A DNA stretch of 64,000 nucleotides from Nitrospira sp. (GTDB lineage Bacteria; Nitrospirota; Nitrospiria; Nitrospirales; Nitrospiraceae): the NCBI GenBank assembly GCA_016873495.1, contig VGXC01000005.1:1-64000 (forward strand). Reading direction: 5' to 3'. The notes beneath the pieces were generated by a model, which saw nothing but the letters and a program-made list of their open reading frames with translations, ran no database searches and was not told the origin of the DNA. Both the position numbers and the translations under genes were made by a program. Below are positions 2,826-5,924 of this stretch, in pieces; the stretch's first letter is position 1, and each line of letters begins with the position of its first letter.

Positions 2826-2863
2826 AAAAAGCCGGAAGATGCTGGCATCTTCCGGCTTTTTTT
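2826..2863. terminator. strong bidirectional Rho-independent terminator
   Basis: An 11-bp perfect stem (2831-2841 with 2846-2856, sequence GCCGGAAGATG) with a 4-base loop is flanked by AAAAA on the left and seven T on the right. It ends the dsrE-tusA operon and can also stop transcripts leaving the transposon on the minus strand. Confidence 0.92.
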
Positions 2864-2871
2864 ATCGGAGT

Positions 2872-2888
2872 TGTACGCTTTTGGACTT
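2872..2888 (+). repeat. left terminal inverted repeat of the IS1595-type transposon
   Basis: TGTACGCTTTTGGACTT, a perfect 17-base inverted match to 5500-5516. The sequences diverge immediately on the inner side. Confidence 0.92.
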
Positions 2889-2898
2889 ATTCTAACGC

Positions 2899-4596
2899 TT
2901 AGATTGGCAAGGGTGTTTGTCCTGTCGTGATCTTTGAAGCCATTTTAGTGGGACTAGCAAAGTCCTTCTTGTCCTCAAGAATTTCCTTAACAGTTAGTAA
3001 CTGAAGCCTGGGGTACGAGTGCCCAGCATACTCATACACCCCAGCGGAAGCTGCCTCCTGACGCATAGCCTTGGTCGGCTCATTGAGTGAAATAAAACCA
3101 GCCAGCTCCACTTCCTTTTCTCGCTCCAAGACTCCCCGTAAGTCCCGCACATCGGTAGGGCGCAGCGTTCCACCCTTTACAGACAGGACCATGGATTTCA
3201 TGGTGTCTTTGGTTTCAAAGTACATCCGCCCATCAATCCCTTTATCGCCAGTCTTTTTCAGAGTCGGAAATCCTCCGACCCGCTCAACCGCCCAATGTTG
3301 GAACTGGAATGGATCATGTTTAAACAGTTCTTGCGCTTGCTCCACGCTCACAGGGATGCCGTCCACAAGGAAATGTTTGTCCTCGGAAAGACGGTATTTC
3401 TCGGTTAAGACTTCCCGCATCAACTTAATGGCTAGAATCGCAATATCGCAGCCGACCCATGACCGCTCCATTTCATGTGCAGCGTACACTGTGGTTCCAC
3501 ATCCGCAAAATGGATCGAAGACAACCCCGCCCTTTTCGCTGGACGTGCGAATAATCCGCTTTAATAACCCAACAGGCTTCTGCGTAGGGTAACCAAGGCG
3601 TTCCTCTTCGTCCTCTAAATACTTCACATCCTCATCAATGCACACATTCTCATCAACGAGGACGCCTTTGGTGTTCGGCTGGTACGCCCAAATGTCCTGG
3701 TAGAGAACGCCTTCGCCCATGTACTGCTTATACATCGGCTGACCGCCATCCTTTTTGGGAAAGACAATCAGCCCTTGGTTATAAAGAGTTTCGAGGGCAT
3801 CAAGTGGCGACAGCCCCTTTCCTTCGCTCGGAAGGAATTGACGGAGGCTTTTGGGGATCGCCCAATGTCTGCCACAGTTCGACGGATTAAACCCGCGCCA
3901 CTCCTTTCCACTCTCGCCTTTTCTCTCGCCGGGGCCAGTGAGGTAGTTCGTTTGATACCGACCACGGCCATCCGTGTGTTTAAAGCGGTCTTCGATGTAA
4001 GCTTTTGTGTACGGGGTTGCTCCAGGCTTGAAATAAAAGTTCTCGGACGCTGAGTAGAACAAGATCACATCGTGAATAGGACCGTATTGCTTGGTCAGCT
4101 TATTGTGAGCGTTGGTGCGTCGCCAAATAATCTCATTACGGAAGTTCTTGTGGCCGAAAATGCCATCCATCATAACCTTGATGTAATGGCTAGCCGTTGG
4201 ATCGCAATGTAGATAAATAGATCCGCTCTTGCAAAGGATCGTTTTCATGTATAGAAGCCGCTGAACCATGTAGATCAGGTAGGCCATCAAGTGCGGCTGC
4301 GTATGGCGCAATGCCTGAACCCAAAGCCGCCAGAACTCGACGTAATAATCGTCCACCCCCTTTTCCCGCATGAGGACCGGCATGCTCATGGCGAGTTTTT
4401 CTTTCTCTGCGTCCATTTCCCATGTATCGCAAAACGCTTGCGCTTGTTCTGGGACAGGCTTGCCAGTCATCGTTTTGTAAACCAAGTTGTAGTTTTGGTC
4501 GGATTTAAAGGGTGGGTCGAGGTAGATGAGATCAACAGAAGCAAGCGGCATCCGCTCCATGATCCGAAGATTATCACCGTAGAATAGGCGGTTCAT
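2899..4596 (-). CDS. DNA methyltransferase fused to a restriction-endonuclease-like C-terminal domain
   Basis: A 565-residue amino-methyltransferase (N6-adenine or N4-cytosine) that uses S-adenosylmethionine. Motif IV (DPPF, residues 27-30) is near the N-terminus and motif I (FDPFCGCGTT, about 360) comes after a long target-recognition region, the order of the beta class. Residues about 430-540 form a separate domain with GDKGIDGR, then LSVKGG, then DVRDLRGVLERE, which resembles the Mrr-like PD-(D/E)xK nuclease fold. The E/Q normally before xK is Ser here, so cleavage activity is uncertain. The start ATG overlaps the transposase stop (ATGA), and the gene lies inside the transposon. It could be a solitary epigenetic methylase or a one-protein restriction-modification system. 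Confidence 0.9.
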   Translation of the reverse strand: MNRLFYGDNLRIMERMPLASVDLIYLDPPFKSDQNYNLVYKTMTGKPVPEQAQAFCDTWEMDAEKEKLAMSMPVLMREKGVDDYYVEFWRLWVQALRHTQPHLMAYLIYMVQRLLYMKTILCKSGSIYLHCDPTASHYIKVMMDGIFGHKNFRNEIIWRRTNAHNKLTKQYGPIHDVILFYSASENFYFKPGATPYTKAYIEDRFKHTDGRGRYQTNYLTGPGERKGESGKEWRGFNPSNCGRHWAIPKSLRQFLPSEGKGLSPLDALETLYNQGLIVFPKKDGGQPMYKQYMGEGVLYQDIWAYQPNTKGVLVDENVCIDEDVKYLEDEEERLGYPTQKPVGLLKRIIRTSSEKGGVVFDPFCGCGTTVYAAHEMERSWVGCDIAILAIKLMREVLTEKYRLSEDKHFLVDGIPVSVEQAQELFKHDPFQFQHWAVERVGGFPTLKKTGDKGIDGRMYFETKDTMKSMVLSVKGGTLRPTDVRDLRGVLEREKEVELAGFISLNEPTKAMRQEAASAGVYEYAGHSYPRLQLLTVKEILEDKKDFASPTKMASKITTGQTPLPI

Positions 4597-5450
4597 GCCG
4601 CCACCATCACATCGAGGGCGGTGCGAAATTCGTTGGGCTGATTTCTCAGGTTGTACTTAAAGCAGGCGTGATGGTGCTGTCCATACCCTGCCCGCTTAAC
4701 GAGGGACCAGAAGCCTTCAATCGTATTCGTATGAACCAGGCCGTTTGCATACTCCACAGCGTGGTTCACGGTCGCATGCAGTTGAGATTTGTTTACATGG
4801 CGATAGCCGCCGAACTCGTCCGTGATAACGAGCGTCCCGGCGTTATCAACGAACTTGTTAATGAACTTTGATAGGCCCTTCGTTGAGAGTTCACCGGGTT
4901 TGGCCGGACGAGCTATCACCCTTCCGCCACGTTCGACCACGCCGATAACTGCGGTTTTCTTCGTTCCACGTCCGCGCTTGTTCGGCTTGTCATTATCGCG
5001 GCGGTTGGGTTTACGCGGCTTGCCGCCAATGTAGGTTTCATCGGCTTCAACAATCCCATACAGCAGCTTGGTTTGCTGCGGGTCATTCGCCATCGCCACG
5101 CGCACGCGATGCATCATGCTCCAGACTGTAGGCCGACGCATGCCAAGGTCGCGAGCGATCTGGCAGGCGCTCGCAGATTTCTTGGCATTCAGCATTAAGG
5201 CAATCAGGAGAAACCATTGACGCAATTCAACATGGGTTCCGTGGAAGATTGTTCCGACCGTTGCCGCGAAGGCCCTAGTGCAGCCCTGACATTGCCAGCG
5301 CATCATTGCCCGATCCCCGCTGGCATGCCTGTGAACGGATTCGCTATTGCAATACGGACAGACCGGACGCCCCCGCCAGCGAATCCTTTCAAGGTATTCG
5401 ATGGCCTGCTCTTGGGTCTGGAAGCTATTGAAAACCTCAAGGATGTTCAT
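4593..5450 (-). CDS. IS1595-family (ISXO2-like) transposase
   Basis: A 285-residue transposase that cuts and joins at the 17-bp terminal repeats. An N-terminal zinc ribbon is visible (CPYC at 31-34, CQGC at 54-57), followed by a helix-turn-helix region (KSASACQIARDLGMRRPTVW, about 92-111). The DDE-type catalytic domain shows the family hallmark ADETYIGG near 134, VITDEFGG near 208 and NTIEGFWS near 242. ATG at 5450 follows AGGGAGG five bases upstream. The C-terminus after NEF differs from the usual FRYN-type ending, but the frame runs cleanly into the coupled methyltransferase start, so I read it as functional. Confidence 0.94.
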   Translation of the reverse strand: MNILEVFNSFQTQEQAIEYLERIRWRGRPVCPYCNSESVHRHASGDRAMMRWQCQGCTRAFAATVGTIFHGTHVELRQWFLLIALMLNAKKSASACQIARDLGMRRPTVWSMMHRVRVAMANDPQQTKLLYGIVEADETYIGGKPRKPNRRDNDKPNKRGRGTKKTAVIGVVERGGRVIARPAKPGELSTKGLSKFINKFVDNAGTLVITDEFGGYRHVNKSQLHATVNHAVEYANGLVHTNTIEGFWSLVKRAGYGQHHHACFKYNLRNQPNEFRTALDVMVAA

Positions 5451-5499
5451 GGCGTCCTCCCTGTATGCCAGGAGTATATCTGGCTAGGGAGGACTTGTC

Positions 5500-5516
5500 A
5501 AGTCCAAAAGCGTACA
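5500..5516 (-). repeat. right terminal inverted repeat of the IS1595-type transposon
   Basis: AAGTCCAAAAGCGTACA, the exact reverse complement of 2872-2888. It lies 50 bases upstream of the transposase start. Confidence 0.92.
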
Positions 5517-5924
5517 GGTCCGTTTTTTATTGACCGTAAGGAGCGTTGGGCGATTTCCAGATGATCCCATATGTTGTTGGTCATATGGTCACGAAGCCTA
5601 TATGTTGTAGTTTTTTGTTGACAGGGCGGAACTCATTTGCTATGTAGCCTCTGAGATTTCTTTCCTCCGAAGGACCGCTGACCCGGCGTTTGCTGCCATG
5701 AGCGTGGCAGCCCAGTACCTCAAGCCTCGAGGTAACGGATGTCTGGAAGGGTCGGTTCTCAAATGCTCCCCCAGCGAACATCAAACTGCCCCCTGCACAT
5801 GGCCTATTCACCCAAGCGTCGCATCGACTACTCCATCGGTTTCAGCGAGGGACGAACAGAGACCTGAGGAGGGCAACAAGGACATCGGGAGCCGCCATGG
5901 TGATCTCACACAAAGGAGGGGAGG
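5517..5924. other. intergenic stretch beside the transposon, no convincing gene
   Basis: About 400 bases between the transposon end and the next gene. Open frames on either strand lack a good ribosome site and recognisable sequence. A 22-codon frame at 5799-5867 has no clear support. The region is probably a remnant left by insertion and decay. Confidence 0.5.

What the first reader, a model, noticed from the sequence alone, without database searches (positions are those of the whole stretch)
2872..5516. Transposon that couples its transposase to a DNA methyltransferase with a nuclease-like domain
Seen: 17-bp perfect inverted ends, intact IS1595-type transposase, and a 565-residue methyltransferase joined to it by an ATGA overlap. 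The methyltransferase carries a C-terminal domain resembling Mrr-like PD-(D/E)xK nucleases (GDKGIDGR, LSVKGG). Established: IS1595 elements may carry passenger genes. Inference: the element may spread a methylation mark or a one-protein restriction-modification trait, with the methylase perhaps regulating transposition or protecting the host.
Basis: partly seen in the sequence, partly recalled or inferred. Interest (0 to 1): 0.72.

Follow-up and report, generated by a model that had tools for sequence, protein, structure and literature searches.

The report
Transposon carrying a methyltransferase–nuclease passenger gene
A small jumping gene in this bacterium carries, locked to its transposase, one protein that joins a DNA-tagging enzyme to a restriction-nuclease-like domain; the same pair sits inside matching ends in many unrelated bacteria, and related jumping genes carry other anti-virus genes, so this transposon lineage may be a shuttle for single-gene defences.

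Summary
The element is 2866-5522 (2657 bp), not 2872-5516. Its ends are 23-bp inverted repeats (21/23), flanked by a perfect 8-bp target duplication, TTTTTTAT. A congeneric genome has the empty site. The transposase is IS1595 family but lacks 12 conserved residues that all 18 aligned relatives keep wholly or partly, so 'intact' is doubtful. The 565-aa protein is a beta-class (probably N6-adenine) methyltransferase with an Mrr-like PD-(D/E)XK domain. D455 and K474 are invariant, but the acidic position is Ser here (Glu in about half the family).

Twenty elements across several phyla have the same gene order inside matching ends; 13 have perfect 8-bp duplications. Transposase and methyltransferase diverged together (r=0.89), whereas the target-recognition domain was exchanged between lineages. 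That, and copies with broken methyltransferases that still moved, argue against a role in transposition.

Sister IS1595 elements carry other passengers: a one-protein restriction-type enzyme, a C5 methyltransferase, a ThsB-like TIR protein, an AriA-like ATPase, or P63C proteins. Best reading: a transporter IS carrying a defence or anti-restriction modification enzyme. Nuclease activity is unproven. IS-borne methyltransferases are known; I found no report of this module, but ISfinder could not be searched.

The parts
2858..2865 (.). left copy of the 8-bp target duplication, TTTTTTAT, in the T-tract of an intrinsic terminator
   Evidence: empty site in congener G060 (L275); terminator stem 2826-2861
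2866..2888 (+). left terminal inverted repeat (methyltransferase end), CGGAGTTGTACGCTTTTGGACTT
   Evidence: CGGAxTxxTACGCTTTTGGACTT-type ends also in L002, L004, L006, L007, L010
2899..4596 (-). 565-aa beta-class (probably N6-adenine) DNA methyltransferase with C-terminal restriction-endonuclease-like domain
   Evidence: PF01555 E=8e-37; AlphaFold model; best PDB matches EcoP15I Mod, M.BceJIV, RsrI, MboIIA
4507..4518 (-). methyltransferase motif IV DPPF (residues 27-30)
3607..4041 (-). target-recognition region (about residues 186-330), variable and exchanged between elements
3493..3522 (-). SAM-binding motif I region (residues 359-368, VFDPFCGCGT)
2962..3384 (-). Mrr-like PD-(D/E)XK domain (about residues 405-545); E438, D455, S472, K474
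   Evidence: (Mrr_cat in 33/40, NA-iREase1 in 36/40 relatives)
2902..2919 (-). C-terminal tail QTPLPI, sliding-clamp-binding-like QxxLx[FLIM] peptide
4593..5450 (-). IS1595-family transposase, 285 aa
4667..4668 (-). junction at which a 12-residue block conserved in relatives is missing (between H261 and A262)
   Evidence: alignment A3
5473..5501 (-). predicted promoter TTGACA-17-TATACT; the -35 box overlaps the inner edge of the right terminal repeat, as in most relatives
5500..5522 (-). right terminal inverted repeat (transposase end), CGGACCTGTACGCTTTTGGACTT
5523..5530 (.). right copy of the 8-bp target duplication, TTTTTTAT

Best explanation
This is a transporter insertion sequence (tIS) of the IS1595 family. 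A DDE transposase inserted a 2.66-kb unit into an AT-rich 8-bp target (shown by target duplication and empty site). Transposase and passenger are probably transcribed from one promoter whose -35 box is the inner edge of the transposase-side repeat (predicted, conserved) and are translationally coupled by ATGA (sequence). The passenger is a beta-class, probably N6-adenine, methyltransferase with an exchangeable target-recognition region and a C-terminal Mrr-like nuclease-fold domain (fold and motifs shown; activities inferred). Most likely it acts as a one-protein modification or restriction-modification enzyme: it marks the host genome at its own site and, at least in relatives with the full D-ExK motif, cuts unmarked DNA. 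It thus benefits the host against phage, or the element against host restriction, and is not part of the transposition machinery. The copy here may no longer move by itself.
For: Ends and 8-bp target duplication; empty site in G060. Twenty elements with the same architecture; 13 with 8/8 and 3 with 7/8 duplications. All 22 pair-bearing transposases of one supported clade (98/97) precede the methyltransferase; the 23rd, L053, precedes its truncated remnant. Transposase and methyltransferase co-diverge (Mantel r=0.89 core, 0.84 C-terminal domain) but the target-recognition region does not (r=0.32; mean distance 0.65 against 0.32). Swaps: L013/L092 from different subgroups share 73% there but 47% in the C-terminal domain, whereas L013/L022 share 24% and 84%. 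Low dN/dS where computable for transposase, core and C-terminal domain (0.04-0.10). Mrr_cat in 33/40 relatives; fold matches EcoO109I, MspJI, FokI, BamHI. Related IS1595 elements carry a HSDR_N-N6_Mtase-specificity one-protein enzyme (L212), a C5 methyltransferase (L215), ThsB-type TIR (L209), AAA_15/AriA-like ATPase (L210) and PDC-S42 (L201).
Against: Position 472 is Ser in the window and about half the family, so cleavage may be lost; NA-iREase1 is a family named 'inactive'. No activity, recognition site or phenotype is known. The methyltransferase family is common as a lone gene in phages, where anti-restriction is the usual explanation. The most common passenger of the sister elements is P63C, of unknown function. 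The genome sample was found through the methyltransferase, so lone relatives of this transposase clade may be under-sampled; the transposase-driven check found only three further clade members, all with the methyltransferase.
Confidence: 0.6

Rival explanations
1. Anti-restriction orphan methyltransferase: the enzyme methylates the element and host DNA so that the element survives restriction on entering new cells; the nuclease-fold domain is a DNA-binding or regulatory relic.
For: Ser at the acidic position of the window and about half of the family; a similar domain in Pfam is named inactive; lone relatives abundant in phages; target-recognition exchange fits an arms race.
Against: D455 and K474 are invariant in 41 homologues and about half keep a complete D-ExK motif; the C-terminal domain is under purifying selection like the catalytic core where this could be computed.
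Confidence: 0.3
2. The methyltransferase regulates transposition (as Dam does for IS10), by methylating the ends or promoter.
For: Strict order and ATGA coupling in the window and tight order across the clade; co-divergence with the transposase.
Against: Target-recognition regions are exchanged between lineages whose ends keep their lineage type; L031 and L032 share a broken methyltransferase and interrupted transposase yet sit at different sites with their own duplications; sister elements with similar ends have other passengers.
Confidence: 0.07
3. Neutral passenger: a chance capture with no function, kept by hitch-hiking.
For: Single copy here and a possibly defective transposase.
Against: Long co-divergence, low dN/dS and catalytic motifs kept across phyla.
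Confidence: 0.03

Closest known systems
IS1595 family, transporter ISs (tISs) such as ISNha5, tISCpe8 and MTnSag1 (Siguier et al. 2009, cited in PMC5704250 and PMC11891212)
   Same: IS1595-type DDE transposase with zinc ribbon, inverted repeats, 8-bp duplication, passenger gene inside the ends
   Different: Passengers named in the reviews read are a transcription regulator (ISNha5) and resistance; none of those read names a methyltransferase-nuclease fusion for IS1595. ISfinder itself could not be searched.
IS with methyltransferase passenger in the IS1380 family (IS220, named in PMC11891212)
   Same: An insertion sequence with a methyltransferase passenger gene
   Different: Different transposase family; whether that enzyme carries a nuclease domain was not stated in what I read
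Type III Mod EcoP15I and beta-class N6-adenine methyltransferases M.BceJIV, RsrI, MboIIA, CcrM
   Same: Best structural matches; motif order IV - target recognition - I
   Different: About 15-18% identity; the C-terminal PD-(D/E)XK domain is not part of those matches; no separate Res subunit here
Mrr-type PD-(D/E)XK domains (PF04471) and MspJI/EcoO109I fold
   Same: E438, D455 and K474 core, Mrr_cat matches, Foldseek probability 1.0
   Different: Fused to the C-terminus of a methyltransferase; Ser instead of Glu/Gln before VK in this copy
Type IIG one-protein restriction enzymes
   Same: Methyltransferase, target recognition and nuclease fold in one chain
   Different: Type IIG enzymes, from general knowledge, usually carry the nuclease at the N-terminus of a gamma-class methyltransferase; here it follows a beta-class one, and activity is unproven
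Tn7-like transposons with defence cargo (PMC8649781)
   Same: Transposon carrying restriction-modification, OLD-type and other defence genes
   Different: Tn7-like elements are large with many cargo genes; here one to three genes directly behind one IS1595 transposase
Phage orphan methyltransferases (for example Streptomyces phage Yasdnil gp48, Mycobacterium phage Amgine gp37)
   Same: Homologous over 96% of length, 35-37% identity
   Different: Stand-alone phage gene, no transposase or inverted ends

Membership tests
IS1595 insertion sequence family | IS1595-type DDE transposase with zinc ribbon | tested here: met
   PF12762 101.7 bits (cut-off 27), PF12760 37.8 bits (25.4), NF033547 163.7 bits (75)
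IS1595 insertion sequence family | terminal inverted repeats and 8-bp target duplication | tested here: met
   23-bp repeats 21/23, TTTTTTAT on both sides, empty site in G060
IS1595 insertion sequence family | complete, active transposase | tested here: inconclusive
   presumed DDE residues present, 12-residue conserved block absent. Activity not testable here
Transporter IS (tIS) | passenger gene not needed for transposition inside the IS ends | tested here: met
   twenty elements with the pair inside the ends; sister elements with similar ends carry other passengers; copies with broken methyltransferase moved
Beta-class N6-adenine DNA methyltransferase | order motif IV (DPPF) - target recognition - motif I; beta-class fold | tested here: met
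   Base specificity (N6-A rather than N4-C) is inferred from DPPF
Mrr-like PD-(D/E)XK nuclease | fold and profile match | tested here: met
   Mrr_cat 33/40, NA-iREase1 36/40; model pLDDT 87, EcoO109I E=4.6e-4
Mrr-like PD-(D/E)XK nuclease | complete catalytic motif D...(D/E/Q)xK | tested here: not met
   window has S472 at the acidic position; 19/41 homologues have Glu, 3 Gln, 19 Ser; D455 and K474 invariant
One-protein (Type IIG-like) restriction-modification enzyme | cuts DNA lacking its own methyl mark | not testable with these tools
   needs purified protein; domain architecture compatible
Methylation-regulated transposition | methyltransferase needed for or tuned to the element's own ends | tested here: inconclusive
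   target-recognition exchange and movement of methyltransferase-broken copies argue against; no assay

The most novel reading that the evidence does not exclude
A lineage of IS1595 elements is a dedicated shuttle for single-gene or few-gene anti-phage defences, each locked directly behind the transposase and sharing its promoter. In the clade of the window the cargo is a one-protein modification-restriction enzyme whose specificity is renewed by swapping its target-recognition domain.
Probability: 0.35. Interest if true: 0.72.

Novelty: new variant of a known kind. Interest (0 to 1): 0.56.

Why it matters
If right, insertion sequences of a few kilobases, usually ignored in defence surveys, move restriction-modification-like and other immune genes as minimal one-promoter units between phyla. 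The clear boundaries give a practical way to find new defence genes: read what sits between an IS1595 transposase stop and the far inverted repeat. The methyltransferase-nuclease family with swappable recognition domains would also be a source of new sequence specificities.

Tried and rejected
Copies in the same genome: none beyond the one. Plasmid collection: no element by DNA; the closest plasmid transposases are about 37% identical, and the plasmid methyltransferases examined have no IS1595 transposase in front. A solved-structure search with the C-terminal profile gave only chance hits; the fold search settled it. Preference for terminator T-tracts: the window copy is in one, but only 6 of 22 insertions rank in the strongest tenth of background hairpins, so not a rule. 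I first took the CATOSU copies L029 and L032 as a recognition-domain swap; DNA comparison shows a plain deletion with a frame change. Paper searches found no IS1595 element described with this passenger or as a defence carrier; ISfinder and REBASE were not available. The claim that the pairing is clade-wide rests mostly on loci found through the methyltransferase; the transposase-driven scan gave only three further clade members.

Full report
WHAT IS THERE. The ends are 2866-2888 and 5500-5522 (21 of 23 match), and the next 8 bases on both sides are TTTTTTAT. The site lies in the T-tract of an intrinsic terminator. In the congeneric genome G060 the same place reads ...CATCTTCCGGCTTTTTTATTGACTG..., with TTTTTTAT once and no element, flanks 88-90% identical (the wider upstream region is 92%). 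The insertion is therefore a genuine transposition with an 8-bp duplication after the two species parted. The element's G+C, about 51%, is below the 57-66% of the surrounding stretches. It is single in its genome.

THE TRANSPOSASE. It is an IS1595-family DDE enzyme with a zinc ribbon. In an alignment of 19 clade members the presumed catalytic residues D137, D211 and E245 are present (identified by the usual spacing and the K/R seven residues after E; inference), but the window protein alone lacks the whole block YSRKYMPLYIAE that follows HHH; L008 lacks half of it.

THE PASSENGER. The methyltransferase start overlaps the transposase stop as ATGA. It matches PF01555, has the beta-class order DPPF - target recognition - FDPFCGCGTT, and its AlphaFold model (pLDDT 81) matches EcoP15I Mod, M.BceJIV, RsrI, MboIIA and CcrM best. 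The C-terminal domain (residues about 405-545; separate model pLDDT 87) matches EcoO109I, MspJI, FokI and BamHI, and 33 of 40 relatives hit Mrr_cat. D455, G456, K474 and R484 are invariant in 41 homologues. Position 472 is Ser in 19 including the window, Glu in 19 and Gln in 3. So the fold claim is confirmed, the activity claim is open, and more so for this copy than for the Glu relatives.

IT IS A FAMILY OF ELEMENTS. A methyltransferase-driven scan of genome contigs brought 61 loci; more than 20 have an IS1595 transposase directly in front, in Alphaproteobacteria, Nitrospira, Latescibacterota, Paceibacterota and others. Twenty of them (with the window) have a matching inverted-repeat pair outside both genes; 13 have perfect and 3 have 7/8 target duplications. 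Two main end types occur, CGGAxTxxTACGCTTTTGGACTT and CGGAATxAGTAGTTATGGGCTT, and they follow the two transposase subclades. The transposases with the pair form one supported clade (98/97); its one apparent exception, L053, is followed by a truncated methyltransferase; a distant Bacteroidota pair, L052, lies outside. A transposase-driven scan of viral contigs found three clade members, all with the methyltransferase. In 296 sampled genomes of the phylum the element occurs only in the window's genome, whereas methyltransferases of 40-48% identity without a transposase occur in seven others: rare and horizontally spread. One Rhodobacteraceae MAG holds five 99-100% identical copies.

EXCHANGE OF SPECIFICITY. 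Distances of transposase and methyltransferase core correlate at r=0.89, and of the C-terminal domain at 0.84, but of the recognition region only at 0.32, with twice the divergence. L020 and L023 are 85% alike in the core and 86% in the C-terminal domain but 33% in the recognition region. L013 shares 73% of the recognition region with L092 of the other subclade, though their C-terminal domains are only 47% alike. Core, C-terminal domain and transposase show dN/dS of 0.04-0.10 where it could be computed; many synonymous distances are saturated. The module is old, functional and changes specificity. This speaks for a role in which the recognised sequence itself is under changing selection (restriction-modification or anti-restriction) and against methylation of fixed sites in the element.

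MOVEMENT WITHOUT A METHYLTRANSFERASE. L031 and L032 carry the same nested insertion in the transposase and the same deletion that removes much of the recognition region and shifts the frame, yet lie at different sites with their own duplications. They moved in trans, so a working methyltransferase in cis is not required.

EXPRESSION. The transposase-side repeat runs into TTGAC(A) in most elements; in the window TTGACA-17-TATACT (11 of 12) follows. Transposase and passenger thus probably share one promoter whose -35 box is the edge of the repeat (inferred).

SISTER ELEMENTS. Transposases at 45-50% identity, with CGGA-type ends and often 8-bp duplications, have other genes directly behind the transposase stop: a 759-aa HSDR_N - N6_Mtase - specificity protein, that is, another one-protein restriction-type enzyme (L212); a C5 methyltransferase plus an unknown 251-aa ORF (L215); a membrane-type protein with a ThsB-type TIR protein (L209; L205 alike); an AAA_15/AriA-like ATPase with an IrrE-like protease (L210); PDC-S42 (L201); and most often P63C proteins of unknown function (L074, L213, L220, L221; similar ORFs in L073, L076). 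Transposons with defence cargo are known for Tn7-like elements (PMC8649781). IS-borne methyltransferases are known for IS1380 (IS220) and IS1595 passengers for ISNha5 (a regulator) (PMC11891212). I found no paper on this module or on IS1595 as a defence carrier, but most specialist papers and ISfinder were out of reach.

VERDICT. A real IS1595 transporter IS that inserted after this species split from its sampled congener; a new variant of a known kind. The family-level pattern (locked, co-evolving, specificity-swapping methyltransferase-nuclease cargo, next to sister elements with other defence genes) is more interesting than the single element. The function as a one-protein restriction-modification or anti-restriction enzyme is inferred.

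Noticed in passing
L201, L205, L209, L210, L212, L215 (viral contigs): Sister IS1595 elements with CGGA-type ends carry different defence-type passengers directly after the transposase: one-protein HSDR_N-MTase-S enzyme, C5 methyltransferase, ThsB-like TIR protein, AAA_15/AriA-like ATPase, PDC-S42.
   Followed up: partly
L073, L074, L075, L076 (same phylum); L213, L216, L217, L219-L221, L226, L227: The most common passenger of related IS1595 elements looks like a P63C-domain protein of unknown function (PF10546 confirmed for L074, L213, L220, L221; the others by sequence likeness only), started close to the transposase stop.
   Followed up: partly
L019, L023, L029, L031, L032 (Rhodobacteraceae MAG CATOSU): Five 99-100% identical copies; two share a nested IS in the transposase and a frame-changing deletion in the methyltransferase but sit at different sites with their own duplications, so they moved in trans.
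   Followed up: yes
window 2902-2919 and C-termini of relatives: The methyltransferases end in a QxxLx[FLIM] peptide like the bacterial sliding-clamp-binding motif: 61 of 120 distinct tails against 3.2 in shuffles. Clamp binding would couple modification to replication.
   Followed up: partly
L017:4911-6515, L025:1508-3104: Spirochaete contigs have a close methyltransferase gene alone between inverted repeats GTTATGCGC..AT..TTTTTG, an apparently methyltransferase-only mobile unit.
   Followed up: partly
window 5500-5522 and L002-L030: The transposase-side inverted repeat runs directly into TTGAC(A), so the repeat edge doubles as the -35 box of the operon in most elements.
   Followed up: yes
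L053:4768-7426: Two damaged IS1595-methyltransferase elements face each other in an Entotheonella chromosome, one of them truncated after 41 methyltransferase residues.
   Followed up: no
L038:4257-7556, L041:4977-6470: A Cellvibrionales MAG carries several lone methyltransferases of this family; two have 90% core and 100% C-terminal identity but 23% in the recognition region, a recent specificity exchange outside the transposon.
   Followed up: partly
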